Positions 9,802 to 52,748 of a DNA stretch of 64,000 nt are shown here, one piece after another. The stretch is from positions 248,001 to 312,000 of the forward strand of contig FREU01000006.1 in assembly GCA_900143615.1 (NCBI GenBank), in the 5' to 3' direction. How positions within the stretch are numbered: position 1 is the stretch's first letter; every line of letters starts with the position of its first letter. This DNA is from Rhodobacteraceae bacterium Alg231-30. GTDB taxonomy: Bacteria; Pseudomonadota; Alphaproteobacteria; Rhodobacterales; Rhodobacteraceae. Below the pieces are notes generated by a model that was given only the letters and a program-made list of their open reading frames with translations, did no database searches and was not told the DNA's origin. Made by a program: the position numbers and the translations under genes.

Positions 9802-9803
9802 TG

Positions 9804-11980: not shown

Positions 11981-12190
11981 TTACCCCTTGAGAAGTTCTT
12001 GGCGCTTGGCTTCGTATTCTTTTTCGGTCATCGCCCCTGCATCATATGCCGTTTTTAAGTCGGTCAGTTGTTGACCCGTTGAGACTGTGGTCACGTTTGC
12101 CGACGATTTCGAAGACCGCCCACAAGACGTCAGCGCCAAAGACGCACAGACCATCACAACAACTAGCTTCGTGATATTCATTGCTTTCAT
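11981..12190 (-). CDS. Small SHOCT-domain lipoprotein
   Basis: The 69-residue precursor has a lipoprotein signal peptide ending in the lipobox LTSC (LALTSCGR). Acylation of that Cys would leave a mature peptide of about 46 residues. The C-terminal half (LTDLKTAYDAGAMTEKEYEAKRQELLKG) fits the short SHOCT helix-turn-helix motif, which often assists oligomerisation. An alternative ATG at 12181 (MNITKL) is equally good. It points toward the ilvC terminator and diverges from the EamA permease. Its function is unknown. Confidence 0.75.
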   Translation of the reverse strand: MKAMNITKLVVVMVCASLALTSCGRSSKSSANVTTVSTGQQLTDLKTAYDAGAMTEKEYEAKRQELLKG

Positions 12191-12390
12191 TCCCCTAATT
12201 TGCTTTCACAACTTAAGGCCGCAGCTCAAAAACATGCAACCTTTGGCTTTGGTAAACGCCACTCAGTGTTCCAATATTTTGACCTTTCCGCCAAGACAGC
12301 ACGCTTGTAAAAAATTTCAAATTTCGAACAAACATTCCCCTTCACTCAATGGCTTCTTGCTCACCATGCTCCCCCGTGCCACTCAGTCAT

Positions 12391-13302
12391 ATGAAGTCAC
12401 CTATCCCAAATAAACTCGATTGGATCATGGTTGCCGCTCTGGGTGTGATCTGGGGTGGCACTTTCATGGTTCAAAAACTGGCGCTTGGGCATTTGCCGCC
12501 CTTCTGGGTCGCCGCTGGCCGAATTGGGTTTGCGGCAGTCATCACCACTGTTATTTGGCAGGCACGCGGTGGTCTTATGTTCACCCAATCCAAAACAGAC
12601 TGGCCGAGATTATTGGTGGCGTCGATCTTTAGCGCCGCTGTCCCGTTTATGTTTTTGGCTTGGGCCCAACAATACGTCACTTCGGCCTTTACTGGCGTGT
12701 CAATGGCAGCTGTTGCATTGATTGTTTTGCCACTGGCCCACCTCCTTGTACCCGGCGAAAGAATGACCGTGCGCCGCAGTTTTGGATTCTTGATTGGTTT
12801 CGCGGGGGTTTTGGTTCTAATCGGCCCTTCGGCGTTTGCCAGCAGTGGCAGCCCATATGAAAAATTCGGGCAATTAGCCTGCCTTGGCGCGGCCGCCTGC
12901 TATGCAATCTCATCAGTCATCATGCGCCGGCTTCCTCCGCTAGACCCGGTTGGGCTCGCCGCTGCGACCCTTCTGTTTGGATCAGCCGTCGTCATTCCGA
13001 TCGCATTCTTGAAGCACGGCTTGCCACCCATCCCATCGAATGAAGGATTGGCGCTTGTTGCTCTCTTGGGGCTGGTGCCGACCGCCGCCGCCAGCCTCCT
13101 GCGTATTGTGGTCATTCGTAGCGCAGGCCCGGTCTTCATGAGTTTGACCAACTATCAGGTCCCACTATGGTCGGTCATTTTTGGCGTGACACTGATGGGA
13201 GAACCCGTGCCGAACACATTGGTCTGGGGAGCAATCCTGATTCTCGTGGGAGTGGCTCTAAGTCAATACGGCGCGCTAAAACGTCTGTTCTCCAAGAGAT
13301 AA
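12391..13302 (+). CDS. EamA/DMT family permease
   Basis: This 303-residue inner-membrane protein has ten predicted hydrophobic helices in two EamA repeats. The signature GVIWGGTFMVQKLALGHLPP lies in the first repeat, and the second runs from about residue 155. Family members export metabolites or amino acids; the substrate cannot be predicted. The frame is open from 12349, but the ATG at 12391 directly precedes the hydrophilic lead-in to helix 1. No clear Shine-Dalgarno is visible. It converges on glmM. Confidence 0.85.
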   Translation: MKSPIPNKLDWIMVAALGVIWGGTFMVQKLALGHLPPFWVAAGRIGFAAVITTVIWQARGGLMFTQSKTDWPRLLVASIFSAAVPFMFLAWAQQYVTSAFTGVSMAAVALIVLPLAHLLVPGERMTVRRSFGFLIGFAGVLVLIGPSAFASSGSPYEKFGQLACLGAAACYAISSVIMRRLPPLDPVGLAAATLLFGSAVVIPIAFLKHGLPPIPSNEGLALVALLGLVPTAAASLLRIVVIRSAGPVFMSLTNYQVPLWSVIFGVTLMGEPVPNTLVWGAILILVGVALSQYGALKRLFSKR

Positions 13303-13309
13303 GGAAAAG

Positions 13310-14656
13310 TCAGCTCACCGCTTCTGTCACTGCGTCCACAACACTGTCCACCGTGCGCTCCAGCAGGTCCGCATCCTCGCATTCAGCCATAACGCGCACC
13401 AAAGGTTCCGTGCCCGATTTACGGATCAGCAATCGCCCATTCCCGACCAGCGCCGCCTCAGCAGATTGAATCGCCAGCTTCACGCGCTCAGTTTCCAGAG
13501 GTGTCTGACCAATGCCGTAGCGCACATTCTTAAGCATCTGCGGCACTGTCTCAAACACTTGTGCCAACTCCGATGCTTTGCGCCCGGTTTCAACCATCGC
13601 CGCCAAAAACTGCAAGCCCGCCATAAGCCCATCACCAGTTGTCGCGTAATCGGTCATGACAATATGGCCCGATTGCTCACCACCAAGATTGAATCCACCC
13701 TTGCGCATCGCTTCGACCACATAACGGTCGCCAACAGCCGTGCGTTCGAGGCGCAAACCTTTGCCTTCCAGAAAGCGCTCCAAGCCGAGATTGGACATCA
13801 CCGTCGCAACCAATGCGCCGCCTTTCAACTGACCACTCTCGGCCCAACGCGACGCCAACAACCCCATGATCTGATCACCATCAGCGACCTGACCAGTCTC
13901 ATCGATGATCATCACGCGGTCTGCGTCACCATCCAGACAGATACCCACATCTGCGCCATGCGCCACAACCGTTTCGCTTGCCACAAGAGGCTTAGTTGAT
14001 CCGCAATCTTTGTTTATATTCAATCCATTAGGCGCAACCCCAACAGGAATAACTTCCGCGCCAAGCTCCCAGAGAGCTTCCGGAGCGGCACGATATGCAG
14101 CGCCATTGGCACAATCAATAACCACTTTGATTCCGCTCAATGGCAGGTCGCGCGGTAGTGAACTTTTGACCCGCTCGATATAACGGAACCGACCGTCATC
14201 AATACGTTTCGCCCGACCGATGTTTTGTGGTTGAACAGGCTCCACACCGGTCTCAATCAAACGTTCAATTTCCATCTCGGCATCATCACTCAACTTAAAG
14301 CCATCCGGCCCAAAGAATTTGATGCCATTGTCTTCAGCCGGATTGTGGCTGGCCGAGATCATGACTCCCAAATCAGCCCGCATGGATGTGGTCAGCAATC
14401 CCACGGCCGGAGTAGGTACCGGCCCGAGCAAGAAAACATTCATACCCGTCGAGGTCAGACCAGCTGTTAACGCATTCTCAAACATATACCCTGACAAGCG
14501 CGTATCTTTTCCGATCACGACGCGATGCTGGTTATTGCCGTCATTGCGGAAGTAACGGCCCACGGCAGCGCCAATCCGCAAAGCCATCTCTGCAGTCATC
14601 GGCGCGATATTTGCGGTACCGCGCACCCCGTCGGTTCCAAACAGCTTACGCGTCAT
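13310..14656 (-). CDS. glmM: Phosphoglucosamine mutase
   Basis: This enzyme converts glucosamine-6-phosphate to glucosamine-1-phosphate for peptidoglycan and LPS precursors. The 448-residue protein has the start FGTDGVRG, the phosphoserine loop ISASHNP (active Ser103), the Mg-binding DGDADR, the sugar-binding GGEQSGH and the phosphate-binding [10 protein letters not shown], all in the normal order. It overlaps the folP reading frame by 11 bp, so folB-folP-glmM is an operon. This linkage of folP and glmM is widespread in bacteria. Confidence 0.97.
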
Positions 14657-15665
14657 TTACTTCTCCTGTTGTCACAGCCTGCCACAAGCTCACCGCCTGC
14701 CGCGTCTCAGCCACATCATGAACACGTAGGATTTGCACGCCCTGCGCAATGGCTTCAAGCGCCACCGCCAAGGACCCCGGCATTCTCTCTGTTGCGATGT
14801 CTACATTCCCGATTGTGCCAATAAATCGCTTACGCGATGCCCCAAGCAAAACCGAGCAGCCTAAAGAATGGAACAAACTGATCCGCGACAGAAGCCGCAG
14901 GTTATGCGCCATTGTTTTACCAAACCCGATACCCGGATCAATCACGATATTGCTGCGTGCAAGACCAAGAGCTTCAAGACGTTGCACCTTGTCTTCTAAA
15001 AAATCATACACATCCAGCAAAACATCCTCGTATGTCGGATCATTTTGCATGGTTTGCGGATCACCCTGCGTGTGCATCACGCAAACCACCGCTTGCGCTT
15101 GCGCGCAAAGAGGTGCGAGAGCTGAATCAAACGTCAGCCCCGAAACGTCATTGACCAGAAATGCGCCATGCTCCAAAGCCGCCTGCGCTACTTCAGCTTT
15201 ACGGGTATCAATGCTGACTGGCGCGCCAAGCTCTTTGGATATTGCTGCAATCACTGGGGACGTGCGCGCAATTTCAGCTTCAATTGGCACTTCGACTGCG
15301 CCCGGCCTTGTAGATTCTCCACCAACATCAATAACAGTTGCGCCAGCTGCCAACATCGTACGAGCGTGCGCCAAGGCATGCGCAGAGCCAGAGTACTTTC
15401 CGCCGTCGGAAAAACTATCAGGAGTAACGTTGAGAATGCCCATGATCTGGGGGCGGTTGACCCGCACCCGCCCCAGTTTTGGGCGCGCGGCACAGATCTG
15501 CTTCAAAATCCGGTCCGGCACCTCAGAAACTGGAATAATTTGCGCGGCCTTACCGCGTTCAAAACGCTCGATTTGGGTGAACCATGCCCAGCCTCCCGCA
15601 ATAGTGCGCGCGCCATCCGGACGCGCGACATCGGTTTGAGGGATCGCTCGAAAATACGTAGTCAT
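14646..15665 (-). CDS. folP: Dihydropteroate synthase
   Basis: The enzyme condenses 6-hydroxymethyl-dihydropterin pyrophosphate with p-aminobenzoate in folate synthesis. The TIM-barrel core begins near residue 72 with [16 protein letters not shown]. It contains [40 protein letters not shown] and the C-terminal LRVHDV. About 70 residues precede the core, a longer N-terminus than the usual 270-280-residue enzyme. The ATG at 15665 (MTTYFRA) is chosen; 15674 (MSDMTT) is possible. The gene sits between folB and glmM and overlaps the latter. Confidence 0.95.
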
Positions 15666-15704
15666 GTCAGACAAATGCGAAATCGTTCAGGAAAAAGCAA
15701 GGCC

Positions 15705-16634
15705 TTAGAGCTTGGCCTGCCCCACCGCGACACATGTTGCAGGAATAGACAGTTCTAATGGCAGCTCTGCGCCAATGATCCAAAAATCTTGCGCTTGCAT
15801 GTGCTCGGCGAACCAAGCTCCAAGCGCCAAGGTGTCTTTTGCAGAAGACGATGGACCATCGACCGCATCCAATACCATTTTGGAGGGTGCCCAAACACAG
15901 GTCTGACCGTTGCGCATGGCCCAATCCATTTCGGTGCGAGTGCTCACAACGACGCAGCGCTCATCTTTTGAAGCCAGCGCCCATGCATTTTGCTCAATAG
16001 CGAGGAGATCAATTCGCCGCTGCGTCATTGCATGACCTGTCACAGGTGTCTCCGCTTCAGGGGCACCGACACAAAACACCAAAGGCACGCTCAAAGCTTG
16101 CAGCTGATCAATCCACGCTTTTAGCAGCGACGAGTTCAAAGCCTCATTGGACAGGAAAACGACGCGCGGATGCGGCGCATCAGCTTCTTCTGTGCTGGCA
16201 ACCAACGTCGGCACGACACTCTTGCTGCGCGCGATCTCAACACCCAGCGCACCAGGGCCGCGATCCAGCTTCTCGATGCGGACAAACACGCGCATGGCTT
16301 GCGGCTCAATCAGGATACGTTCGGCGACACGGGCGGCCAAGGTCTCCAATAGGTTCAACCGTTCCGCTGCCAACTCATGCGCAATCGCTTCGGTCACCCG
16401 ATCATATGAAAGAATGCGATCAACATCATCCTCAACAGGGTCGGTTAGCGGTCTAACTTCGACGACTACGTTAAAGCAGATACGCTGCGAATGGCCGCGT
16501 TCGGCCTGAAACGCTCCGATATCGACCTCCACGATATGGTCTCGCAGGGAAATCCGATCAAGAGGATCCTTGCTGGCGGTCGCTTCCGCACGCTCTGAGG
16601 GGTGGGCAAAGGCCAGCCGAATTTCGTTGCTCAC
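15705..16634 (-). CDS. folB: Dihydroneopterin aldolase fused to a C-terminal amino-acid-kinase-like domain
   Basis: Residues about 25-140 form a FolB domain (ISLRDHIVEVDIGAFQAERG, then LSYDRVTEAIAHEL, ERLNLLETLAARVAERI and RVFVRIEKLD). This domain cleaves dihydroneopterin to 6-hydroxymethyl-dihydropterin. Family members are normally near 120 residues, but this protein has 309. The extra 150 residues (VVFLSNEALNSSLLKAWIDQ onward, ending with WAPSKMVLDA and KDTLALGAWFAEHM) look to me like a degenerate amino-acid-kinase fold of the MfnE type. That is an inference from motif shape. The gene leads the folB-folP-glmM operon. The other folate gene in the window is folE2. Confidence 0.88.
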   Translation of the reverse strand: MSNEIRLAFAHPSERAEATASKDPLDRISLRDHIVEVDIGAFQAERGHSQRICFNVVVEVRPLTDPVEDDVDRILSYDRVTEAIAHELAAERLNLLETLAARVAERILIEPQAMRVFVRIEKLDRGPGALGVEIARSKSVVPTLVASTEEADAPHPRVVFLSNEALNSSLLKAWIDQLQALSVPLVFCVGAPEAETPVTGHAMTQRRIDLLAIEQNAWALASKDERCVVVSTRTEMDWAMRNGQTCVWAPSKMVLDAVDGPSSSAKDTLALGAWFAEHMQAQDFWIIGAELPLELSIPATCVAVGQAKL

Positions 16635-16771
16635 GGCGTTGCTCCTGTGGTCAAGGTTTCGCGCACTTTAAAAGCTGCACGGCCAGCTACCAGAGCGCGA
16701 GACGTCATACCATAGCCCAAATACGTCACATCTGACGCGCAACGCGCTTAATTTGTGTCAGTTGAGTACCG

Positions 16772-17440
16772 TCAGTTTAAGGTAAGACGCGTTGGCATAC
16801 GATAAAAGTGATGAACGCCAATGGTTGCGGTGCGTGGAAACTGTTGTGCCCAACGCGGATTCACTGCTTTCGTATGGTAATGCGTCGCACCATCGGTCAA
16901 CGCGCTAGACGCACCATCAATGGTCATACGGGCAACTTTACCCACCCGTTCATAAGCGTCTGCCTCGCGAATTTTGTTAGCGACGCCATCGCAGTTGTAG
17001 GTAAATTGGCACTGATACTTGCGACCACTCTCGGTGCCCTGTTTCACGACACCACAAACACTTTCCGGAAAGTTTGAATGGGCCGCGCGGTTCATAATGA
17101 CTTCCGCCACCGCAAACTGACCTTTTACGCTTTCGCCACGGGCCTCAAAGTAGAGAGCCTCGGCAAGACAAGACCATTGCTCATCGCGCTTTTGTTCGGC
17201 AACGGCGGGTTGCTGGTCTACCCAAGCGCGCGACAATGTGATCTCGATCGGTGCCGGAGTTTTCTTGGGGGCAAAGATATCGCGTAGTGTCTTGCCGTCA
17301 AACAGCGTGACGCGCTGAAACTGCTCGGTCTCAACTGGCTCATCTGAAGGAGCCTCTGCCAAAGTTGCAGTTGCCGAAAGCGAAAACGCCAAAACTAATC
17401 CATGTAGAATTCGTATTTTTGCCATAGTTCCAAAATCCAT
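16772..17440 (-). CDS. Secreted SleB-type cell wall hydrolase
   Basis: The protein is 222 residues (217 from the internal ATG at 17425). It has a Sec signal peptide (ILHGLVLAFSLSATATLAEA) and a C-terminal Hydrolase_2/SleB domain from about residue 85. The likely catalytic Glu is in EALYFEARGESVKGQFAVAE, with VIMNRAAHSNFPESVCGVV and the conserved THYHTKAVNPRWA following. It should act in the periplasm on peptidoglycan as a lytic transglycosylase or amidase-like enzyme. Three cysteines may form disulfides. It is transcribed alone, downstream of the PEP-utilizing enzyme on the same strand. Confidence 0.87.
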   Translation of the reverse strand: MDFGTMAKIRILHGLVLAFSLSATATLAEAPSDEPVETEQFQRVTLFDGKTLRDIFAPKKTPAPIEITLSRAWVDQQPAVAEQKRDEQWSCLAEALYFEARGESVKGQFAVAEVIMNRAAHSNFPESVCGVVKQGTESGRKYQCQFTYNCDGVANKIREADAYERVGKVARMTIDGASSALTDGATHYHTKAVNPRWAQQFPRTATIGVHHFYRMPTRLTLN

Positions 17441-17569
17441 AACGGCCCGTTAAGCCAAAATTCAGGCGCTCCTTTAGCCCAAAAAGCCCAAAGGAGTCCA
17501 CCCAAGCGAACGGCCGACATAAGCTTCATTTTGTCGCTGTCAAGGGGATGGTGTTGAAATTAAACGATT

Positions 17570-20110
17570 TTAGGTGATTCTATCCTGTATTGCGATCTGT
17601 GCAGCGGCAAGCCGCGCAACAGGAACACGGAATGGCGAGCAGGACACATAGTCCATGCCTAGCGCCCGACAAAAGGCGATTGATTCGGGGCTGCCGCCAT
17701 GTTCGCCACAGACTGAGAGCGTCAAATTGGGCTGCGCTTTGCGTCCCCGCTGGGCTCCTAGCCGGACGAGTTCACCCACACCCTCCTGATCAAGTGTATG
17801 AAACGGATCCTCGGGGAAAACACCTTGCTTCACATAAGGTGACATAAAACGACCCGCGTCGTCGCGCGACAGCCCATAGGTCATCTGGGTCAAATCGTTG
17901 GTCCCAAAACTAAAGAATTCGCAATGCGGCGCGATATCTTCTGCGCGCAGCGCTGCGCGTGGAGTTTCAACCATTACGCCAAGCCGGTATTCAAATTCAG
18001 CTCCAGTCTCAGTACGCACGCTCGCCGCAACCGCTTCAATGCGCGTCTTGACCAGTTCGACTTCACGCTTTGCTGAAACCAATGGGATCATAATTTCGGG
18101 CACCACATTTTGTCCGGCACGATGGGCTTCCAATGTGGCTTCAAATACGGCACGCGCCTGCATGTCGATGATTTCGGGTACCGTGATCCCCAACCTAACG
18201 CCACGCATCCCCAGCATCGGGTTATATTCCCCCAATGCCTCGACCCGACGAGTCACATCCGACAATGGCAGGTTCAAAGCTTCAGCCAGATCCCTGAGGC
18301 CCGCGCGGTCAGTTGGTAGAAATTCATGCAGAGGTGGATCGAACAGGCGAATACAGACTGGTAGTCCCTGCATGATCCTAAAGAGCTCCACAAAACTGTC
18401 CCGCTGCAATGGTAGCAACTGCTCCAATGCCGCGCTTCGATCCTCAGGCCCGTCGGCAAATATCATTTCACGCATTGCGGTCAGCTGGTCCGCCTCAAAG
18501 AACATATGCTCTGTACGACAGAGACCGATCCCTTCTGCTGCAAACATCAACGCCGTGCGCGCATCTGCCGGCGTATCCGCGTTTGCACGAACGCTGATAT
18601 CCCGGATGTCATCCGCCCATGACATCAGAGTCTGGAACGCTGCTCCCAACTCGGCTTCTAACATATCAGGTTCACCAGCTAACGACTGGCCATTGCTGCC
18701 ATCAACTGTGATCACATCACCTTCTTTGAAAACACGCCCGTCCTGAGCCGTCAGGCGATTTTTAACAACATCAAACCCCATCGACGTTGCGCCCACCACA
18801 CAGGGTAGCCCCAACCCCCGCGCAATCACTGCCGCATGACTTGTCACACCACCGCGCTCGGTCAAAACAGCGCTGGCGGCGTGCATGCCGCGAATGTCTT
18901 CCGGATTGGTTTCACGCCGCACCAAAACACAAGCTTCGCCTCGCGCGGCACTGGCTTGCGCTTCTTCCGCAGAAAACACAATTCGCCCAGTGGCCGCGCC
19001 CGGGCTGGCGGCAATTCCCGTTCCAATCACATCACGAACAACCTCTGGATCGACTTGTCGGTGTAGCAACTCATTTAGCGATCGCGGGTCAATCCGCATT
19101 ACCGCTTCTTCACGAGGAATAATGCCATCTTCCGCTAAAGAAACCGCGATCCGCACAGCAGCGCGCGCATTGCGTTGAACACGAACCCCATCCAGAATTT
19201 GTATTGCACCGTTCACCAGTGTGAACTCGACCTGCATTTCTTCGCGCAGCTTTTGGCGCATCAATCCCGCAAATTCCTTCAGCAAACCAAATTTCTCAGG
19301 TGCCTTGTCTTCAAGCGAATTCCCGCGCTGATCGCGTTGAAGAAACAGCGCGCCGGCACCACTTCTCAAGGCATCTCGCCCTTGGCTTTGACTGAGGTAA
19401 CGTCCAATAATTTTAGGACGCCCTGTGCCACTATCCACAAGCTGTAAAACGCCTGAGCCGCTTTCGCCCTGCCCCATGCCAAGAGACATTTGCTGAACGA
19501 CCAATCCCAGACCCGCTTCAGCAGGTGCGCCTTTGGCTTGGCGCAGCAATCGTGCCGTTGTGCCTTCCCACGCACGCGCCATCGAACGTAACACACCAGC
19601 CAGCTGAACACCGCGGCTTTGTGGGAACGCCTCTTCTGCCTCAGCTTCATAAGCTTCCAGATATCGGCTCAGTGCACTTTCGCTACCTGGATCAATATCA
19701 TCGAAGATATCCGGATCCAGCCGCGCGACATGGGTCGAATAGGTTTGGATAAACTTCAAATACAACCCTGTCGCGGCCTCCATCCCGATTTCATCACTTA
19801 GGGACAACAGGCATTTTTCGTTCATACCGATGTTGAGTACCGCGCCGGGACCACCCCAGTCGGGATCCTCAGAGGAGGGTCGCACACAGAGTAGCTGATC
19901 TTCACCAAAAGCGGCCAGAACCCGCTCAACATCAGGCAAATCGCCTGCTGCGATGCTGTGCACCGCATCAAAAGACAGCGCCACGGTTTGAGGCACCGGA
20001 AGGTCCAGTCGCACCAAACGCTGCAAACACTTCGCGCGCCCGCCATGGGTCGCGACCGCAACTGGTGCTGTTGGAGAAATCAGGGTGATATTGGGGTCAT
20101 CTTGCTGCAC
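17570..20110 (-). CDS. PEP-utilizing enzyme, pyruvate phosphate dikinase type
   Basis: The 846-residue protein has an N-terminal ATP-grasp domain containing LLCVRPSSEDPDWGGPGAVL. A swivelling phosphohistidine domain follows with LTERGGVTSHAAVIARGLG, whose His is the phosphate carrier. The C-terminal PEP/pyruvate TIM barrel includes GLCRTEHMFF, GMRGVRLG, FSFGTNDLTQMTYGLSRDD and the catalytic Cys in LSVCGEHGGSPESI. It would interconvert pyruvate, ATP and phosphate with PEP, AMP and pyrophosphate. It is slightly shorter than standard PpdK (about 870-890), and the N-terminal part is divergent, so it may be a paralog with altered specificity. It is the last gene of the glyQ-glyS block. Confidence 0.85.
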   Translation of the reverse strand: MQQDDPNITLISPTAPVAVATHGGRAKCLQRLVRLDLPVPQTVALSFDAVHSIAAGDLPDVERVLAAFGEDQLLCVRPSSEDPDWGGPGAVLNIGMNEKCLLSLSDEIGMEAATGLYLKFIQTYSTHVARLDPDIFDDIDPGSESALSRYLEAYEAEAEEAFPQSRGVQLAGVLRSMARAWEGTTARLLRQAKGAPAEAGLGLVVQQMSLGMGQGESGSGVLQLVDSGTGRPKIIGRYLSQSQGRDALRSGAGALFLQRDQRGNSLEDKAPEKFGLLKEFAGLMRQKLREEMQVEFTLVNGAIQILDGVRVQRNARAAVRIAVSLAEDGIIPREEAVMRIDPRSLNELLHRQVDPEVVRDVIGTGIAASPGAATGRIVFSAEEAQASAARGEACVLVRRETNPEDIRGMHAASAVLTERGGVTSHAAVIARGLGLPCVVGATSMGFDVVKNRLTAQDGRVFKEGDVITVDGSNGQSLAGEPDMLEAELGAAFQTLMSWADDIRDISVRANADTPADARTALMFAAEGIGLCRTEHMFFEADQLTAMREMIFADGPEDRSAALEQLLPLQRDSFVELFRIMQGLPVCIRLFDPPLHEFLPTDRAGLRDLAEALNLPLSDVTRRVEALGEYNPMLGMRGVRLGITVPEIIDMQARAVFEATLEAHRAGQNVVPEIMIPLVSAKREVELVKTRIEAVAASVRTETGAEFEYRLGVMVETPRAALRAEDIAPHCEFFSFGTNDLTQMTYGLSRDDAGRFMSPYVKQGVFPEDPFHTLDQEGVGELVRLGAQRGRKAQPNLTLSVCGEHGGSPESIAFCRALGMDYVSCSPFRVPVARLAAAQIAIQDRIT

Positions 20111-40655: not shown

Positions 40656-41312
40656 TCACAATGATCTCGCGGCCGTTACATGGCGTCGATAAACCTCGAT
40701 CATCCAGCCCAACATCAGCGCATTGAGCAAATGCCACATATAATGGGTTCCAACCGACAGCGCCGAGCAAAGCGGTTCATCCAGACTGCGAAACACCAAG
40801 GAAGCAGATAAAACACCAGCGCCCAATCCAAGACCCAACGCCACAGATGGCAAGCGTGATCTCAGCAAAACAGCATAAATCGCGATCAGCGCCGGCACAG
40901 GCCAATAGACGGCCGAGCTGCCAATACCCGGAATTTTCTGAAACAGCGGGATCGTTGCCGCGGCATAAGGGAAAAACATAGCTGTCAATCCGAGAGAGAC
41001 CGGCGTGGACAACCCCCAATAGGTACGATTGGCGGCATAGATATACAGCAGGACAAACATCAGAATCGGCGCGGTGTCTGCCGCGGCGGCCCAGACCTGC
41101 GCATGTGTATGAAACAGAAAGCTCCCGATGCCTATCGTGCCCAAAACAAAGGTTAATAAGCGTGCAAGGATCAAATCCGGTCCAGACAGCCGCCGCCACA
41201 TCACAAACGCCGCCACTAGAAAGGCAAAATTGGTCAATGCGTTGACAGGTTCCGCCCAATAATTGGCGCTCAAACGCTCGCAATAGCTATTTAGATCTGC
41301 GGTCCAATTCAT
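40656..41312 (-). CDS. Ceramidase (alkaline/PAQR-like) family membrane hydrolase
   Basis: The 218-residue protein has seven hydrophobic helices. It shows the family zinc-site pattern: AEPVNALTNFAF near the N-terminus, SFLFHTHAQVWAAAADTAPI with Ser, His and Asp, and the C-terminal THYMWHLLNA with two His. This pattern is shared by alkaline ceramidases and related CREST-superfamily hydrolases. A bacterial member might act on sphingolipids, on N-acyl amino-acid lipids such as ornithine lipid, or on other amide-linked lipids. The substrate is unknown. It is divergent from the MBL hydrolase gene. Confidence 0.82.
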   Translation of the reverse strand: MNWTADLNSYCERLSANYWAEPVNALTNFAFLVAAFVMWRRLSGPDLILARLLTFVLGTIGIGSFLFHTHAQVWAAAADTAPILMFVLLYIYAANRTYWGLSTPVSLGLTAMFFPYAAATIPLFQKIPGIGSSAVYWPVPALIAIYAVLLRSRLPSVALGLGLGAGVLSASLVFRSLDEPLCSALSVGTHYMWHLLNALMLGWMIEVYRRHVTAARSL

Positions 41313-44684: not shown

Positions 44685-44712
44685 AGGGGGATTTGAAACC
44701 AAACTTCCCCCT
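44685..44712 (+). terminator. Hairpin between the pseudouridine synthase and the XpaC/TelA cassette
   Basis: AGGGGGA (44685-44691) pairs with TCCCCCT (44706-44712). A small AGCCATGGCT palindrome and a T-rich stretch follow. It probably marks the end of the upstream transcript. Confidence 0.5.
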
Positions 44713-44769
44713 AGCCATGGCTTGGCTTTCTTTCTAGATTCCTCATCGGGTTAACAAGGATTTGTCCCG

Positions 44770-44853
44770 ATGTCCGGAACCGGATTACAAAAGCTGTCGT
44801 TTGTTCTTCTCGTCATTTTGATTCTCTATGTGTCAATCACAGGAGGTGTCTGA
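44770..44853 (+). CDS. 27-residue single-helix membrane microprotein
   Basis: A short open frame begins at the ATG at 44770 and ends at the TGA at 44851-44853. It encodes a few polar residues (MSGTGLQKL), a hydrophobic helix (SFVLLVILILYVSI) and a TGGV tail. Its stop overlaps the ATG of the XpaC-like gene (TGATG), and the AGGAGG that precedes that ATG lies inside its last codons. This arrangement indicates translational coupling and argues for a real gene or leader ORF. It could be a small subunit of the membrane module that follows. No homolog is known to me. Confidence 0.55.
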   Translation: MSGTGLQKLSFVLLVILILYVSITGGV

Positions 44854-45725
44854 TGGCTCAAAAGTATGGTGGGAAATTCAGCCCACAAACTGCGCAATCG
44901 CCGCAAGCTGAGACCTTTCAAAATGCACGCCGCAGCCGCGTTGGAGGGCGTGTAAACCTGCTGTTTATCGCACCTTTGCCCTTGATTTGGCAGGCGTTTG
45001 GCAATGGCCCAACCGCGCTAGTGCTAAACCTTTTGGCATTGGGCACGCTGCTTCTGTCGGCATGGCTTACGCGCGAGGGATTGCTTGCACAAGAGGCTTA
45101 TGAAGCCCGCAAAGTCGCACGACGCCCCGCCCTGCCGCGCAAGCTTTTGGGCTCCGCCCTCACCGGCCTTGGCCTCGCCATCGCAGGATTTGCAGCCACC
45201 GCCGAAGTCATCGCCCCGATCATCTATGCGGTCGTTGGTGGCACTCTGCACAGCTTAGCTTTCGGCATCGACCCTATGCGCGACAAAGGGGCTGAGGGCA
45301 TCGATCAATACCAAACAGACCGCGTTGCCCGCGCCGTTGATGAGGCCGAAGAGCATCTGCACGCCATGAGCGACGCCATTCGCCGCGCCGGTGACCGCGC
45401 GCTGGAAAGCCGCGTCGAGCGTTTCCAACAGGCCGCCCGTGCTTTGTTTCGCACTGTCGAAGACGATCCCCGCGATCTAAGTGCTGCACGGCGCTATCTC
45501 AGCGTTTATTTACTGGGCGCCAAAGACGCGACCATCAAGTTTTCAGAAATTTATGCGCGCACACGCAGTGCCGAGGCCCGCGCTGACTACGAGACACTGC
45601 TCGATGATCTCGAAGACAACTTTGCCGCACGCAACCAGAAACTGCTGCTGGATGACCGCAGCGATCTCAATATTGAAATCGAGGTGCTGCGCGAGCGGCT
45701 CAAAAACGAAGGCCTACGCCACTAA
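44853..45725 (+). CDS. XpaC-like (5-bromo-4-chloroindolyl phosphate hydrolysis) membrane protein
   Basis: The 290-residue protein has two N-terminal hydrophobic segments (about 33-50 and 53-72) and another hydrophobic stretch (GSALTGLGLAIAGFAATAEV and following, about 95-130). A charged helical C-terminal half (RVARAVDEAEEHLHAMSDAIRRAG) has coiled-coil character. This is the layout of the XpaC family, which is found next to TelA in Bacillus subtilis (xpaC-yaaN). No enzyme activity is established. It is translationally coupled to the microprotein before it and lies 32 bp before the TelA-like gene. XpaC and TelA have been linked to tellurite and envelope stress in other bacteria. Confidence 0.85.
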   Translation: MAQKYGGKFSPQTAQSPQAETFQNARRSRVGGRVNLLFIAPLPLIWQAFGNGPTALVLNLLALGTLLLSAWLTREGLLAQEAYEARKVARRPALPRKLLGSALTGLGLAIAGFAATAEVIAPIIYAVVGGTLHSLAFGIDPMRDKGAEGIDQYQTDRVARAVDEAEEHLHAMSDAIRRAGDRALESRVERFQQAARALFRTVEDDPRDLSAARRYLSVYLLGAKDATIKFSEIYARTRSAEARADYETLLDDLEDNFAARNQKLLLDDRSDLNIEIEVLRERLKNEGLRH

Positions 45726-45757
45726 CCTCGCAACACGTTTACAGGAAAGGTAGTTTT

Positions 45758-46957
45758 ATGTCCGACCAGATTGCCCAAAAAGCCCAGGCCGCCACGGCTG
45801 AAATCGACGCTGTCACTGCTGTGGCATTGGTCGAACCCACCGACGCCGGGGCCATTGTTCCATTGGCAGACGCTGACGCGCCTGTATCCGCTGAAATCAC
45901 CAAGCGCATGGCCGAGTTGGACATGTCGGATACAAACTCCATCGTCTCATTTGGCTCCGCCGCTCAGGCCGAGTTGCAGGAAATCAGCCAAGCCATGTTG
46001 CAAGACGTACGCAACAAGGACGTTGGCCCCGCCGGAGACGGTCTGCGCAATATGGTCACTGCCATTCGCGGCTTTTCGGTCAGCGAGCTGGATGTACGGC
46101 GCGAACGTTCATTCTGGGAAAAGCTACTTGGTCGCGCCGCGCCTTTCGCCAAATTCACCGCGCGTTATGAAGAAGTCCAAGATCAGATCGACAAGATCAC
46201 CGACAACCTGTTGGGACATGAGCATAAGCTGCTCAAAGATATCAAATCGCTCGATATGCTCTACGATAAGACCCTGAATTTTTACGACGAACTCGCACTT
46301 TATATTTCAGCAGGCGAGGCCAAGATAGCCGAACTTGACGGCACAGCTATTCCCGCCAAAGAAGCCGAGGTTCAAGCCGCCGCCGAAAACGATCAGGTTA
46401 TGAAAGCTCAGGAATTGCGTGACCTTCGTGCTGCGCGCGATGATTTGGAACGCCGTGTGCATGACCTTAAACTGACCCGCCAGGTCACTATGCAATCGCT
46501 GCCTTCGATCCGGCTGGTTCAGGAAAACGACAAATCACTGGTCACCAAAATCAACTCAACGCTGGTCAACACCGTGCCGCTCTGGGAAACCCAGCTGGCC
46601 CAAGCCGTCACCATCCAGCGCAGCGCCGAAGCCGCCGCCGCCGTACGCGACGCAAATGACCTGACCAACGAGCTGCTTACGTCCAATGCCGCCAACCTGC
46701 GCCAGTCCAACAAAGTGGTGCGCGAAGAGATGGAGCGCGGCGTGTTTGACATCGAAGCAGTGAAGAAAGCCAACGCCGATCTGATCGCAACCATCAATGA
46801 ATCACTTCAAATTGCGGATGATGGCAAAGCCAAACGCGCCGCCGCCGAAGAAGACATGAAGAAGATGGAGGCCGAGTTGCGCGACACACTTGCCGCCGCC
46901 AAGGCGCGCAAAACCGGATTGGGTGACACCGCCGCAACTGCTGTCCCGGCGTCGTGA
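45758..46957 (+). CDS. TelA/YaaN-like toxic anion resistance protein
   Basis: The 399-residue, almost wholly helical soluble protein has long coiled-coil segments. Family marks include the ISQAMLQDVRNKDVGPAGDGL region, VSELDVRRERSFWEKLLGR, FAKFTARYEEVQDQIDKITD and the LPSIRLVQENDKSLVTKI stretch. TelA proteins give tellurite or antimicrobial tolerance in some bacteria; the mechanism is unclear and probably involves membrane stress. Its stop overlaps the GTG start of the DUF2927 gene. No TerC or TerD gene is present in the window. Confidence 0.9.
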   Translation: MSDQIAQKAQAATAEIDAVTAVALVEPTDAGAIVPLADADAPVSAEITKRMAELDMSDTNSIVSFGSAAQAELQEISQAMLQDVRNKDVGPAGDGLRNMVTAIRGFSVSELDVRRERSFWEKLLGRAAPFAKFTARYEEVQDQIDKITDNLLGHEHKLLKDIKSLDMLYDKTLNFYDELALYISAGEAKIAELDGTAIPAKEAEVQAAAENDQVMKAQELRDLRAARDDLERRVHDLKLTRQVTMQSLPSIRLVQENDKSLVTKINSTLVNTVPLWETQLAQAVTIQRSAEAAAAVRDANDLTNELLTSNAANLRQSNKVVREEMERGVFDIEAVKKANADLIATINESLQIADDGKAKRAAAEEDMKKMEAELRDTLAAAKARKTGLGDTAATAVPAS

Positions 46958-47880
46958 AACCAAGGCTTGTCATAAGTCTTGGCTTGGGGTTGGCCGCTTT
47001 GGCTGCCTGTGAGGACTATGGCCAACAAACGCGGGTGCCGACAGCAGCGCCCGCACCACCTGTTGTAGCGTCTGAGCAAAGTCAGGCCCTCTCCCAATAC
47101 TACAGCAACCTACAGGCCGACCTTTTGGCGCGTGGTTTGATGCGCACCGATGGGGGCGGGCCGGACACGCCTTTCACACCTGACATGTTAGCCCGCAATT
47201 TTGAACGTATCGCCTTTTATGATGAATACACGCGCGGAGCCGGACTAGAGCGCGCCTCGGGTCCCGCCGGTCAATTGCGTCGCTGGTCCGGCCCTGTCCG
47301 CGTGAACATCGAATTTGGCCCCACTGTCTCGGCGAGCATCCAGCAAACCGACCGCGCCACCCTGCAATCCTATATTCCTCGGCTTGCCTCAGCCACTGGC
47401 CATTCCATTTCAGCAACGGCCAACCGGCCAAACTTTCACGTCTTGGTCATGGGCGCAGATGATGGCGCCACAGTCGAAAGCCGCGTGCGTCAGATCGTAC
47501 CCAACGTGGGCACATCCACGCTCAATCTATTTCGCGATCTTCCAAGGGATATTCACTGCCTCGTTGTGGCCTTTGCCTCCGAGGCAAACGCCTATGACTA
47601 CACCACCGCAATCGCCTTGGTGCGCGCCGAACATCCCGATCTGTTGCGCAAATCCTGCCTGCACGAGGAAATCGCCCAAGGTCTGGGGCTTGCAAATGAC
47701 AGCCCGCAGGCCCGCCCCTCGATCTTTAACGATGACGACGAGTTTGCCCTGCTCACGACACATGACGAGATGCTCTTGTCCATGCTTTACGACAACCGGC
47801 TGACCATCGGCATGAGCGCCGAGGCTGCCCGCCCCATCATCCGCACTCTGGCGCGCGAGCAAACCGGACAGATTTACTAA
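46954..47880 (+). CDS. DUF2927 lipoprotein with HE-type motif
   Basis: The 308-residue protein starts with a lipoprotein signal peptide (RLVISLGLGLAALAAC, acylated Cys19). A linker and the DUF2927 domain follow (from FTPDMLARNFERIAFYDEY). Near the C-terminus it carries SCLHEEIAQGLGLANDSPQA, which has the shape of a degenerate zincin HExxx motif. This hints at a metalloprotease-like fold, without proof of activity. The start is the GTG at 46954, in a GTGA overlap with the TelA-like gene. It is probably periplasmic or anchored to the outer or inner membrane, and it is the only lipoprotein of the cassette. Confidence 0.85.
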   Translation: MKPRLVISLGLGLAALAACEDYGQQTRVPTAAPAPPVVASEQSQALSQYYSNLQADLLARGLMRTDGGGPDTPFTPDMLARNFERIAFYDEYTRGAGLERASGPAGQLRRWSGPVRVNIEFGPTVSASIQQTDRATLQSYIPRLASATGHSISATANRPNFHVLVMGADDGATVESRVRQIVPNVGTSTLNLFRDLPRDIHCLVVAFASEANAYDYTTAIALVRAEHPDLLRKSCLHEEIAQGLGLANDSPQARPSIFNDDDEFALLTTHDEMLLSMLYDNRLTIGMSAEAARPIIRTLAREQTGQIY

Positions 47881-47909
47881 TTTAGACCACCCCGAAAGGA
47901 CACATTCCC

Positions 47910-49034
47910 ATGGGTATTTTTGATTTTCTTACTGGCGAATTTATCGACGTCATTCATTGGGTGGACGACACCCGCGACACGCTTGTGTGGCGGTTTGAAC
48001 GCGAAGGTCATGAAATCAAATACGGCGCCAAGCTAACCGTTCGCGAAGGTCAGGCAGCGGTGTTTGTGCACGAAGGCCAATTGGCCGATGTCTTCACCCC
48101 CGGCCTTTATATGCTTGAAACCAATAACATGCCGGTGATGACGACACTTCAGCACTGGGATCATGGTTTCAAAAGCCCGTTCAAGTCTGAAATTTACTAC
48201 GTCAACACCACACGTTTTGCCGATCTGAAATGGGGCACCAAGAACCCGATCATGGCGCGTGACCCTGAATTTGGCCCCGTGCGCCTGCGTGCCTATGGCA
48301 CCTATGCGATCCGCGTTGTCGATCCAGCACGTTTCCTTACTGAAATCGTCGGCACAGACGGCGAATTCACCATGGATGAAATCAGCTTTCAAATTCGCAA
48401 CATCATCGTGCAGGAGTTTTCCCGCGTCATCGCTAGCTCTGGCATTCCGGTTCTGGATATGGCCGCCAACACCGCAGACCTTGGCAAACTGGTGGCGGCT
48501 GAAATCTCTGGCACCATCGCTGAATACGGCCTCTCCATCCCCGAACTCTACATCGAAAACATCTCGCTGCCGCCCGCTGTTGAGGCGGCGATGGACAAGC
48601 GTACCTCGATGGGCATCGTGGGTGACCTCGGCGCGTACACGCAATTCTCGGCAGCCGAAGCAATGACCGCCGCCGCCCAGACCCCAAACTCGGGCATGGG
48701 CGCTGGGATGGGCATGGGGGTCGGCATGGCTATGGCCCAGCAAATGGCGGCCCAAGGCCCATGGGGTGCGCGTCCCACAACCGCCGCACCAGCCCCCCAA
48801 GTCGCCGCAGCCCCGCCTCCTCCTCCAGTCGAGCATGTCTGGCACATCGCTGAAAACGGCCAGACCAAAGGCCCGTTTTCCAAGGCCGCGCTGGGACGCA
48901 TGGCCACCGCAGGTGAACTTACCCGCCAGACACATGTCTGGACCGCAGGTCAGGATGGTTGGAAACATGCCGAAGACGTCGTCGAGCTAGCCCAGCTCTT
49001 CACCATCCTACCGCCACCACCACCGGGCGCATAA
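47910..49034 (+). CDS. SPFH-domain protein with C-terminal GYF_2 domain
   Basis: The 374-residue protein has an N-terminal SPFH-type domain of the virion-core/YdjI branch (LVWRFEREGHEIKYGAKLTV, then EGQAAVFVHEGQLADVFTPG, RFADLKWGTKNPIM and IVQEFSRVIASSG). A Gly/Met-rich linker (about 252-275) and an Ala/Pro-rich linker follow. A C-terminal GYF_2 domain ends the protein (VWHIAENGQTKGPFSKAALG to WTAGQDGWKHAEDV). SPFH proteins organise membrane microdomains, and GYF-type domains bind partners. No transmembrane helix is visible, so recruitment by another cassette protein is likely. Confidence 0.88.
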   Translation: MGIFDFLTGEFIDVIHWVDDTRDTLVWRFEREGHEIKYGAKLTVREGQAAVFVHEGQLADVFTPGLYMLETNNMPVMTTLQHWDHGFKSPFKSEIYYVNTTRFADLKWGTKNPIMARDPEFGPVRLRAYGTYAIRVVDPARFLTEIVGTDGEFTMDEISFQIRNIIVQEFSRVIASSGIPVLDMAANTADLGKLVAAEISGTIAEYGLSIPELYIENISLPPAVEAAMDKRTSMGIVGDLGAYTQFSAAEAMTAAAQTPNSGMGAGMGMGVGMAMAQQMAAQGPWGARPTTAAPAPQVAAAPPPPPVEHVWHIAENGQTKGPFSKAALGRMATAGELTRQTHVWTAGQDGWKHAEDVVELAQLFTILPPPPPGA

Positions 49035-49042
49035 TGCTCCCG

Positions 49043-49113
49043 CCCGGCGGCACCGCCGGGCCGCGCCAACCCGCCCCCACGGGGCGGCGCGATTGCGCCT
49101 TCCCTCGGGTTGG
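49043..49113 (+). repeat. Cluster of perfect hairpins between the SPFH and zinc-ribbon genes
   Basis: CCCGGCGG/CCGCCGGG (49043-49060) forms one hairpin with a CA loop. CCAACCCG (49066-49073) then pairs with CGGGTTGG (49106-49113), enclosing CGCCCC/GGGGCG and GGCGC/GCGCC stems. The folded form could be a branched structure. It may process or stabilise mRNA inside the cassette, or be a REP-like element. Confidence 0.6.
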
Positions 49114-49140
49114 CCCGTCCCTCGTTGATTTCCGCAAACC

Positions 49141-50262
49141 GTGAAAGCTGTTTTCATGACCGACATGCCACCACCCGCCCCCAAGGAAACCACGCGCTTC
49201 CCCTGTCCGCAATGCGGCGCGGATTACCGTTTTGCGCCGCAACAGGGCAAACTGGTCTGCGATCACTGCGGCCATGAGGAAGCCACCGAACAGGGCGACC
49301 GCCAAGCCGCCATTTCCGAGCTTGATTTCAAGGCCGCGCTGGCCGAACAGCTTCCCGCCGCCGAAATGGTCGAAACCCGCGCCTCTACCTGCCCCAACTG
49401 CGCCGCGCATGTTGTGTTTGAGGGCGACACCCACGCCACCGAATGCCCATTTTGCGCCACGCCCGTGGTGGTCGATACTGGCACCCATCGTCAAATCAAA
49501 CCGCGCGCCGTGTTGCCGTTTCAATTCGAAGAAAGGGCGGCCCATGACGCGATGAACGACTGGCTAGGCAAGCTCTGGTTCGCCCCAAATGGCTTGAAAG
49601 AATACGCCCGAAAGGGCCGCAAGATGAACGGTATCTATGTGCCCTACTGGACCTATGACGCCGACACCAAATCACGCTATCAGGGCGAACGCGGCACGAT
49701 CTATTATGTGACCGAAACCGTAATGAGGGACGGCAAACGCGAACAGCGGCAAGTTCAAAAAATTCGCTGGTCGCCAGCCTCGGGCCGCGTGAAGCGCTGG
49801 TTTGATGACGTGCTGGTGCTGGCATCGCGCGCCCTGCCCAAACGCTACACCGACGCACTCGAGCCGTGGGATCTTGCCGCGCTTGAACCTTACACGCCTG
49901 AGTTCCTCGCAGGGTTTCAGGCCGAAGGCTACACCGTGGAATTACAAGACGGTTATGATCAGGCCCGCGCCCATATGGATACCGTAATCCGGCGCGACGT
50001 GGCTTTTGACATCGGCGGTGACCGCCAACGCATCCATCAAATCTCAACCGCCGTCAGCGACGTAACCTTCAAACACATCCTGCTGCCTGTCTGGATGGCG
50101 GCTTATAAATACCGCGGCAAATCCTATCGCTTTGTGGTCAACGGCCAGACCGGACGTGTTCAGGGTGAACGCCCTTGGTCGGCATGGAAAATTGCTGCGG
50201 CCGTTGTGTTTGGAGCCATTGTCGCTGGCGCAATTGGCTATATCATCGCCCAGAATCAGTGA
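49141..50262 (+). CDS. Double zinc-ribbon protein with C-terminal membrane anchor
   Basis: The 373-residue protein carries two Cys4 zinc ribbons near the N-terminus (CPQC with CDHC, and CPNC with CPFC). A domain of about 200 residues rich in Trp and Tyr follows (YVPYWTYDADTKSRYQGERG, LPVWMAAYKYRGKSYRFVVNG). One hydrophobic helix ends the protein (IAAAVVFGAIVAGAIGYIIA). Such proteins are sometimes mislabelled primosomal or TFIIB-like proteins, but nothing here suggests DNA replication. The layout recalls B. subtilis YdjG, which acts with the SPFH protein YdjI at the membrane. The GTG at 49141 or the ATG at 49156 (MTDMPPP) may be the start. Confidence 0.82.
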   Translation: MKAVFMTDMPPPAPKETTRFPCPQCGADYRFAPQQGKLVCDHCGHEEATEQGDRQAAISELDFKAALAEQLPAAEMVETRASTCPNCAAHVVFEGDTHATECPFCATPVVVDTGTHRQIKPRAVLPFQFEERAAHDAMNDWLGKLWFAPNGLKEYARKGRKMNGIYVPYWTYDADTKSRYQGERGTIYYVTETVMRDGKREQRQVQKIRWSPASGRVKRWFDDVLVLASRALPKRYTDALEPWDLAALEPYTPEFLAGFQAEGYTVELQDGYDQARAHMDTVIRRDVAFDIGGDRQRIHQISTAVSDVTFKHILLPVWMAAYKYRGKSYRFVVNGQTGRVQGERPWSAWKIAAAVVFGAIVAGAIGYIIAQNQ

Positions 50263-50284
50263 ACAGATTAAGTAATTACACCCT

Positions 50285-50962
50285 ATGACGATGACCCCCC
50301 ACACCGCCTTGCAAGAGCTCTTGCAAAACCGCCACTCTTGTCGGGCGTTTCGCACCGATCCTGTCCCCAAGGACATTATTGAACAAATCCTTCTAGACGC
50401 GGGCCGCGCACCCAGCTGGTGTAACGCACAGCCTTGGAAAATCATCGTCACCAGCGGCGCCGAAACCGAGGCCTTCCGCAACGCAATGACCAAAGCTTTC
50501 GACAGCGGCACCCCCGCGCCTGACTACCCGTTCCCTGCCAATTACACTGGCGCGCACCTCAAACGCCGCCGCACCTGTGGGTTTCAGCTTTACGAAGCCG
50601 TCGGGATCGGGCGCGGTGACCGCGACGCCCGCACAGCCCAAATGCGCGAAAACTATCTGATGTTTGGCGCGCCGCATGTGGCACTAATCACCTGCCCTGT
50701 CGAGTTGGGCCCCTATGGTGTGCTGGACTGCGGTGGCTTCATCACCGCCTTCTGTCTCTCGGCCCAAGCGCAAGGCATCGGCACTGTGCCACAAGCCGCG
50801 CTGTCTCTCTATTCGAACGTCGTGCGCGCCCATTTCGAAATCCCCGAAGACCGCAAAGTCCTCGCCGCGATTTCCTTTGGCTATCCAGATGGAGATGCCC
50901 CGATCAACAGCTTTAGAACAGAGCGTGCCGAAACGGAGGAATTTGTAGAATGGAGCGGATGA
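50285..50962 (+). CDS. Nitroreductase-family FMN oxidoreductase
   Basis: The 225-residue protein has the FMN-binding start RHSCRAFRTDPVPKDIIEQIL, DAGRAPSWCNAQPWKIIV and the C-terminal AISFGYPDGDAPINSFRTER. It should reduce nitroaromatics, quinones or similar electrophiles with NAD(P)H; the natural substrate is unknown. It starts 22 bp after the zinc-ribbon gene on the same strand, so it may belong to the same transcript as a redox accessory, although this could be coincidence. Confidence 0.9.
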   Translation: MTMTPHTALQELLQNRHSCRAFRTDPVPKDIIEQILLDAGRAPSWCNAQPWKIIVTSGAETEAFRNAMTKAFDSGTPAPDYPFPANYTGAHLKRRRTCGFQLYEAVGIGRGDRDARTAQMRENYLMFGAPHVALITCPVELGPYGVLDCGGFITAFCLSAQAQGIGTVPQAALSLYSNVVRAHFEIPEDRKVLAAISFGYPDGDAPINSFRTERAETEEFVEWSG

Positions 50963-51659: not shown

Positions 51660-52748
51660 TTATTGAGACCGCAACGCCTTTTCTTTGGCTTCGAAAAGCT
51701 CCCCCTTGCTGTCCCCTGCCGCCACATAAGCCTGCGCAGCCTCATGCACCCGCTCTGACGCATCGCGCCCAACAACCCTACGTCCGCGCAAAAGAAACAA
51801 CTTACCAAAATCGCGCCACGTGCCCACCATTGGCGCATCCCCGTCACACTCAAACCGTGCGCGCCACCCCTCCGGCAGCGTCAGCCCACAATCCTAAACC
51901 CGCGCCAGCATCCACACCAGCGGAATATTCGCCAAAGGCCGCGCGGCATCAAACCCGCTCAGCATGCCGCCCACGTCGCCATGCGCCCCACGAAACCAGA
52001 CCTGCTCCACATGCCCCTGCCACCCCTCGGGACAGGTCCACATCTCGGGGTCAAACACAGCGCGCGTTTCATCCAGCGCCAGCGCGTGAAAGCCGTGTTT
52101 GACCATATGGCCCAGTTGATGATTGTGAAACGAATGGCGCGGCTCGGTCAGCCGCCACAGGATCGGCAATCGCAGACCCAGCGCCTTGACCGTATCCCAG
52201 ACGCCAACCATCTCGATCTCAACATGTGCATGGCAATGCGCCGCCGCAAATTCCTGTGCTGCTGCACTATCTGGCGTCAACTCATAGTGCCTATAAGCCG
52301 TGCGAATGTTGCGTTCCGTCGCACAGGATGCCCTTAACAATCCCACTCGATCAATTACGCCTGCAAGGGATCGCACCGCAAAAGCCCCGCGCGAATAGCC
52401 CAGCAAAAATATCCTGTCTCCAGGCCGATACCGCGAGGCCAGATAGCCATAGGCGCGCCGGATCTGTCTGTTAATCCCGCGCCCCATCATCACCTCATGG
52501 ATGCGCCGCCAGCCCATCCATTGCACGCCTGCTTCATAGTAAAGCGATACCTCCGGCCCCAACTCTTGCATCAGGCGATAGCTCAAACCGGCGTTGGTTT
52601 CACAGCCGGGCTTTAACGAGGACATGGTCCCGTCCAAAATAATCACATGAGTGAGCGGCCCCCGTCGGGCCACTGCCGCAGAATGGCCAGAGCGAAACCT
52701 ATTGCCCAGCCATCCAAAAATTGTCTCATGCAGCCGTTTCAGAGGCAT
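51660..52748 (-). pseudogene. DUF2235-family alpha/beta hydrolase interrupted by an in-frame amber codon
   Basis: The frame encodes a DUF2235 protein (VIILDGTMSSL start, nucleophile elbow FLLGYSRGAFAVRSLAG). It runs 284 residues to a TAG at 51894-51896. In the same frame the sequence continues for 78 sense codons to a TAA at 51660-51662. That continuation has protein-like composition (LTLPEGWRARFECDGDAP, then MVGTWRDFGKLFLLRGRRVV), as expected of the family's C-terminus. One C-to-T change in a CAG codon would explain it. It is a young pseudogene, a sequencing error, or a truncated but active enzyme. The 5' end overlaps the upstream molybdoenzyme gene by 23 bp. Confidence 0.8.

What the first reader, a model, noticed from the sequence alone, without database searches (positions are those of the whole stretch)
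44770..50962. Candidate membrane-stress module: microprotein, XpaC, TelA, DUF2927 lipoprotein, SPFH-GYF, zinc-ribbon anchor
Six plus-strand genes form one compact cassette, the first four with overlaps or close spacing (TGATG, 32 bp, GTGA). It joins what in Bacillus are two separate pairs, xpaC-yaaN (XpaC with TelA) and ydjG-ydjI (zinc-ribbon membrane protein with SPFH protein), and adds a DUF2927 lipoprotein, a fused GYF domain and a 27-residue membrane peptide. A model: the zinc-ribbon anchor recruits the SPFH protein by its GYF domain, the TelA/XpaC pair acts at the inner membrane, and the lipoprotein works outside. A nitroreductase may be appended. The functional model is inference.
Basis: partly seen in the sequence, partly recalled or inferred. 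Interest (0 to 1): 0.72.

Follow-up and report, generated by a model that had tools for sequence, protein, structure and literature searches.

The report
TelA–SPFH envelope operon with inactive matrixin
Most bacteria sampled from one family of alphaproteobacteria carry this compact set of probable membrane-stress genes, which joins two gene pairs found apart elsewhere and adds a conserved 27-residue membrane peptide and a lipoprotein predicted to be shaped like a matrix metalloprotease that has lost its zinc-binding residues.

Summary
TelA occurs in 147 of 149 family genomes. Further results:
(1) The 27-residue peptide is real: 69 of 74 loci upstream of xpaC, purifying selection, absent from all 8 loci read that lack xpaC.
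(3) Three other alphaproteobacterial families have the four-gene core without DUF2927 or the peptide; TelA of linked loci forms one clade (100/100).
(4) GYF domain and C-terminal polyproline tail go together in the SPFH protein, so GYF more likely links SPFH copies to each other than to the zinc-ribbon protein.
The nitroreductase is optional (19 of 73). Best reading: an envelope-maintenance complex in which TelA/XpaC takes PspA's place. Function was not tested.

The parts
44705..44740 (+). Promoter-like element TTCCCCCTAGC-N19-TAGATT, about 65 nt before the peptide start
   Evidence: At least 10 of 11 positions of TTCCCCCTAGC in 23 of 69 upstream regions against 0.18 expected from shuffles (the word was chosen from the same regions, and in L038 and L053 it lies 176-184 nt away, out of register). 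One copy, exact, in the whole genome at up to 2 mismatches; the reversed control pattern also gave one match. The factor that reads it is unknown.
44770..44853 (+). 27-residue single-TM microprotein (mp)
   Evidence: Profile finds it upstream of xpaC in 69 of 74 loci; the only other hit at E<=0.1 is L090's, at the same place just outside the search span (profile iterated on these same loci). 77 of 80 named loci. pN 0.07-0.24 against pS 0.43-0.76 among four sequences of the genus.
44853..45725 (+). XpaC, membrane protein (PF10112)
   Evidence: Pfam 96.9 bits, cut-off 29.8; two clear hydrophobic segments at residues 54-72 and 106-124.
45758..46957 (+). TelA (PF05816), predicted all-helical, no TM
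   Evidence: Pfam 355.3 bits; 147 of 149 genomes; no sequence relative in PDB at E<=1; weak model with two long helices 129-207 and 210-292.
46954..47880 (+). DUF2927 lipoprotein with predicted matrixin fold
47656..47700 (+). Degenerate zinc-site segment C-x-H-E-E-x-x-Q-x-x-G-x-x-N-D (residues 235-249)
   Evidence: E238, E239, Q242, D249 in 70 of 70; N248 in 69 of 70. Two distant Pfam members have H-E-x-x-H-x-x-G-x-x-G-H with the histidines at the places of E238, Q242 and D249.
47910..49034 (+). SPFH protein, YdjI-type Band_7_1
   Evidence: Pfam 337.8 bits; no TM segment.
48840..48989 (+). GYF_2 domain of the SPFH protein (residues 311-360)
   Evidence: Pfam 74.1 bits, cut-off 25.8.
49011..49025 (+). 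C-terminal polyproline tail PPPPP of the SPFH protein
   Evidence: PPP in the last 25 residues of 76 of 76 GYF-bearing and 0 of 11 intact GYF-less SPFH proteins.
49141..50262 (+). Zinc-ribbon protein with C-terminal TM anchor (likelier start 49156)
   Evidence: Four CxxC in 68 of 68 orthologues; TM at residues 351-369 of the 373-residue reading; Pfam PF11781 32.5 bits, cut-off 27.1.
50285..50962 (+). Nitroreductase, optional neighbour, not part of the core
   Evidence: 19 of 73 loci; 48 of the 80 nearest named loci.

Best explanation
This is a core operon of the family for keeping the cell envelope intact under stress. A YdjI-type SPFH oligomer lies under the inner membrane, held there by the tail-anchored zinc-ribbon protein, its copies cross-linked by GYF domains that grip the polyproline tails of neighbouring copies. 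It carries TelA, a long helical protein, which takes the place PspA has beside SPFH in Bacillus; XpaC with its 27-residue TM partner docks TelA to the membrane. Outside the cytoplasm the DUF2927 lipoprotein, a matrixin fold without its zinc ligands, binds peptide or unfolded envelope protein without cutting it and so reports or buffers damage. Shown: gene order; TelA of linked loci as one clade in the sample; the peptide and its absence with xpaC; the predicted matrixin fold and the absence of the zinc histidines; co-occurrence of GYF and tail. Inferred: every physical contact, the PspA-like role, the sensing role, the stress itself.
Confidence: 0.45

Rival explanations
1. Toxic-oxyanion (tellurite) resistance operon: the genes protect mainly against tellurite and like ions, and the SPFH part is a helper.
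For: telA of R. sphaeroides is listed among chromosomal tellurite determinants in PMC6955997 (passage; whether it is this gene was not checked, the original paper is not held); a TerC gene lies in 16 of 73 loci.
Against: Presence in 147 of 149 genomes is more than a niche resistance gene would be expected to show; Listeria TelA affects nisin more than tellurite (passage in PMC12791056); no transporter or reductase is kept in most loci (TerC 16, nitroreductase 19 of 73).
Confidence: 0.25
2. Two functionally separate modules (XpaC-TelA-DUF2927 and SPFH-zinc ribbon) that merely share a promoter.
For: Each pair stands alone elsewhere; 106 bp separates SPFH from the zinc-ribbon gene in the window, and a further gene lies there in at least 14 of 73 loci.
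Against: The junction is kept in 61 of 73 loci of the family and in three further families; linked TelA is one clade.
Confidence: 0.2
3. DUF2927 is an active hydrolase with an unusual metal site (E, Q, D) rather than a pseudo-enzyme.
For: E238, E239, Q242 and D249 are invariant in 70 of 70, stricter than decay would leave, and EExxQ recurs in 9 of 12 DUF2927 ORFs read from elsewhere.
Against: None of the histidines of the HExxH members is kept at the aligned places, and the place of the Met-turn methionine (aligned by eye) is Phe in 70 of 70.
Confidence: 0.1

Closest known systems
Bacillus subtilis pspA-ydjGHI (phage-shock/SPFH) operon
   Same: YdjI-type SPFH protein with a membrane protein bearing two zinc ribbons
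   Different: No PspA and no TPM-domain protein among the cassette's Pfam matches; TelA, XpaC, a matrixin-fold lipoprotein and a microprotein instead; the SPFH C-terminus is GYF plus polyproline, not a zinc ribbon (the Bacillus architecture is from PMC11237479, passages, which calls the SPFH protein YdjL)
Firmicutes xpaC-yaaN (telA) pair
   Same: Same two Pfam families, adjacent
   Different: A pair of its own there (Bacillus order recalled; Listeria lmo1966-lmo1967 as a putative operon in PMC12791056, passage); here joined to SPFH-zinc ribbon
Ter stress system (TerC, TelA and others)
   Same: TelA, and a TerC gene in 16 of 73 loci; PMC7824862 (passage) describes TelA among components forming sub-membrane structures
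   Different: No TerB, TerD or nucleotide-synthesis gene among the window's cassette genes; SPFH-zinc ribbon and DUF2927 are not in the passage read
Bacterial matrixins such as karilysin
   Different: Zinc ligands and Met-turn methionine missing; lipoprotein

Membership tests
TelA family PF05816 | Pfam curated score | tested here: met
   355.3 bits, cut-off 30
XpaC family PF10112 | Pfam curated score | tested here: met
   96.9 bits, cut-off 29.8
YdjI-type SPFH (Band_7_1 PF13421) | Pfam curated score | tested here: met
   337.8 bits, cut-off 24
Bacillus-type PSP operon pspA-ydjGHI | SPFH protein plus membrane protein with two zinc ribbons | tested here: met
Bacillus-type PSP operon pspA-ydjGHI | PspA encoded in the operon | tested here: not met
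   No PF04012 match in the cassette's gene products; the PspA matches of this genome lie on contigs C8 and C10, the window on C3
Bacillus-type PSP operon pspA-ydjGHI | TPM-domain protein (YdjH) | tested here: not met
   No such Pfam match in the cassette
Matrixin/metzincin (peptidase M10) | Metzincin-type fold | tested here: met
Matrixin/metzincin (peptidase M10) | HExxHxxGxxH zinc motif (motif recalled) | tested here: not met
   EExxQxxGxxND in the orthologues
Matrixin/metzincin (peptidase M10) | Met-turn methionine (recalled) | tested here: not met
   SIFND; Phe258 in 70 of 70; alignment to the Met-turn is by eye
Matrixin/metzincin (peptidase M10) | Peptidase activity | not testable with these tools
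   Needs purified protein
Ter stress system | TerC/TerD components | tested here: inconclusive
   TerC in 16 of 73 loci, no match in the window; TerD not sought in the genomes
Known anti-phage defence systems (PADLOC) | Match to a defence model | tested here: inconclusive
   Seven proteins scanned: no match at E<=0.001 for XpaC, TelA, DUF2927, SPFH, nitroreductase and the Tle1-like protein; zinc-ribbon protein 17.6 bits to PDC-S64 over its ribbons
PspA/ESCRT-III or ClyA/BAR fold for TelA | Structural match above the level of helical chance | tested here: inconclusive

The most novel reading that the evidence does not exclude
In this family a TelA-based machine has replaced PspA as the effector that SPFH and zinc-ribbon proteins bring to the damaged membrane, and it is coupled across the envelope to a catalytically dead matrix-metalloprotease lipoprotein that senses exposed peptides, with a 27-residue membrane peptide gating XpaC.
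Probability: 0.25. Interest if true: 0.78.

Novelty: new variant of a known kind. Interest (0 to 1): 0.6.

Why it matters
TelA and XpaC are named for old phenotypes; a 2026 paper still calls the mechanism of the Listeria TelA unknown (PMC12791056, passage), and a sequence search found no solved relative of this TelA. A family-wide cassette that ties them to SPFH and zinc-ribbon proteins, a recognisable fold for DUF2927 and a conserved microprotein turns that question into concrete tests. It would also give a case of an apparently inactive matrixin kept under strong selection in bacteria.

Tried and rejected
Chance adjacency: rejected by order in 61 of 73 and 72 of 80 loci. Spurious small ORF: rejected. 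The peptide as a detached N-terminus of XpaC: by eye no such segment in the XpaC ORFs of L120-L122. Zinc-ribbon proteins as the general GYF ligand: only 16 of 68 proline-rich. Defence system: no convincing PADLOC match. PHROGs: TelA alone matches a phage family annotated 'tellurite resistance'. A shared regulon for the promoter-like element: one site in the genome. TelA as ESCRT-III: Foldseek and VIA lists show helical look-alikes only; PspA was not among the rows shown, which excludes nothing. DUF2927 by sequence against PDB: nothing convincing. Plasmid scan with TelA: 593 records, only 6 at 60-80% identity, five Paracoccus and one Pseudorhodobacter, all on replicons over 1.4 Mb. Literature: searches; DUF2927 in no held paper; I saw no description of this joined cassette in their listings or the passages read, but most subscription papers are not held, including O'Gara 1997 on R. 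sphaeroides telA and Collins 2010. The metzincin motif, the Met-turn and the Bacillus gene order xpaC-yaaN are recalled, from no call.

Full report
The window and the cassette. Six plus-strand genes lie at 44770-50262 with a nitroreductase behind. Pfam names XpaC, TelA, DUF2927, an SPFH protein of the Band_7_1 type with a GYF_2 domain, a zinc-ribbon protein and the nitroreductase, each over its curated cut-off; the 27-residue peptide matches nothing. The nearest named TelA is in Shimia sp. SK013 (89% identity), so the genome is probably a Shimia or close kin (inference).

Conservation. TelA was found in 147 of 149 genomes of the order sample, all labelled as the same family; in one of the 147 (G085) only fragments. 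I read 73 loci from 71 genera, the window's own genus included with three loci. xpaC-telA-DUF2927-SPFH-znr stands in this order on one strand in 61 of 73, 54 of them with rluB upstream. The rest: five end after SPFH (three of these, L045, L071 and L083, run to a contig end), two end after DUF2927, two lack only DUF2927 (L039, L047), one lacks xpaC (L037), one has xpaC-telA only (L086), one has a broken telA and no other part but rluB (L077). Upstream, rluB (61 of 73) and the unnamed ORF before it (55) are also often kept; other neighbours less so (34, 20, 19, 5). A named public record, Paracoccus ferrooxidans plasmid pFER4 (1.46 Mb), shows annotated TelA, DUF2927, SPFH and zinc-ribbon genes in the same order.

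The microprotein. A profile built from 25 copies and iterated on these loci finds a 22-35 residue TM peptide ending near the xpaC start in 69 of 74 loci (window included); the single other hit at E<=0.1 is that of L090, at the same place just beyond the search span. Of 72 loci with xpaC 70 have it (missing in L086, L097); neither locus without xpaC does. It is also absent, with xpaC, from five more genomes of L037's genus (L238-L242) and from Paracoccus ferrooxidans (L236). In the named loci 77 of 80 have it; two of the three misses are cut by contig ends; two other matches at E<0.01 lie elsewhere there. Among four sequences of the window's genus pN is 0.07-0.24 and pS 0.43-0.76 (26 codons each, so rough). 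It is absent from L120-L122.

Evolution of the cassette. In a class sample of 153 genomes TelA was found in 14 (11 outside the family, two of them weak) and DUF2927 in 18 (15 outside); outside the family no genome had both over the cut-offs. Of 11 TelA loci read in other alphas (10 genomes), three (L120, L121, L122, three families) have xpaC-telA-SPFH-znr without DUF2927; seven have TelA with or without XpaC but no SPFH, and L127 matched none of my profiles. TelA from linked loci is one clade, 100/100, 16 against 7 sequences; two of the 16 (L075, L086) have no SPFH match nearby, and some unlinked rows are very long branches, of which the program warns. In a phylum sample of 249 genomes 32 have a strong Band_7_1 match (over 200 bits): 15 in this family, 17 elsewhere. 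Of those 17 I read 16: none has TelA nearby, 7 have a strong and 6 a weak zinc-ribbon match, one is cut by a contig end, two (both of one alphaproteobacterial family) have none. The two-sequence PspA profile found no PspA in these 16, a weak test.

GYF and polyproline. Of 89 SPFH proteins tested, 76 carry a GYF domain (69 family, 3 other alpha, 4 outside) and all 76 have PPP in the last 25 residues; 74 also have PPP just before the GYF. Of 13 without GYF, 11 intact ones have no such tail; L071 is cut by a contig end, and L140 is a split gene whose first piece happens to have PPP near its end. This suggests that GYF binds the tail of a sister subunit; the sequences are related, so these are far fewer than 76 independent cases. 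A proline-rich stretch in the zinc-ribbon protein is found in 16 of 68, the window's among them, so a second ligand there is possible in some species.

PspA, TerC and regulation. PspA passes the cut-off in 48 of 149 family genomes (49 at E<=0.001), so most have the cassette but no PspA that Pfam detects. A TerC gene is found in 16 of 73 and 12 of 80 named loci, not in the window; 14 were placed between rluB and xpaC, the places of the others were not checked. The element TTCCCCCTAGC precedes the peptide at 10 or more of 11 positions in 23 of 69 loci (0.18 expected), in most of them followed about 19 bases on by TA(A/G)(A/G)TT, judged by eye; the word was found in the same data, so the figure overstates it somewhat. 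It is unique in the genome. A sigma-70 scan did not report it.

TelA itself. No PDB sequence relative at E<=1. The model from 39 close sequences is weak (69.7) and its look-alikes are ClyA-type toxins and BAR domains at a level common for helical models. I draw no conclusion beyond a long helical protein.

Mechanism and limits. In B. subtilis the SPFH protein YdjI, with YdjG/H, holds PspA at the membrane (PMC8581546). Here TelA and XpaC occupy that neighbourhood, so I propose that TelA is the effector brought to stressed membrane, XpaC and the peptide its dock, and the dead matrixin a sensor or chaperone outside. The order, predicted fold, motif and co-occurrence results are shown; contacts and roles are inferred. 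Tellurite resistance remains a serious rival reading.

Noticed in passing
L134 (unnamed alphaproteobacterial genome G280), 3994-18827: Five DUF2927 genes within 15 kb; two keep an HExxH zinc motif, two read EExxQ, one shows neither.
   Followed up: partly
G000:C8:408886-409557 (L154) and G000:C10:886901-887395 (L153): This genome has two PspA-like matches far from the cassette; the first contains an in-frame TGA.
   Followed up: no
window 51894-52748, minus strand: Gene with a T6SS Tle1-like phospholipase catalytic domain (PF09994, 202.6 bits) just behind the cassette, found in 5 of 73 loci.
   Followed up: no
L136-L151: The C-terminal module of YdjI-type SPFH proteins differs between lineages: GYF with polyproline tail, a SHOCT-like end, or an excisionase-like end (last two named by eye).
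   Followed up: partly
G000:C8:718071-718670 (L135): A second DUF2927 protein in this genome (453 aa, EExxQ motif, long C-terminal extension), with no TelA match in the 15 kb read.
   Followed up: no
window 40656-41309, minus strand: Membrane protein with a ceramidase match (PF05875, 38 bits) upstream of the cassette, found in 20 of 73 loci.
   Followed up: no
L208: A record titled Enemella evansiae (an actinobacterium, as recalled) carries a TelA 81% identical to this one, so the record's name or assembly is doubtful.
   Followed up: no
between SPFH and zinc-ribbon genes in 14 of 73 loci, e.g. L034:11465-11887: A further same-strand membrane protein of about 175 aa sits between the two genes; not identified.
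   Followed up: no
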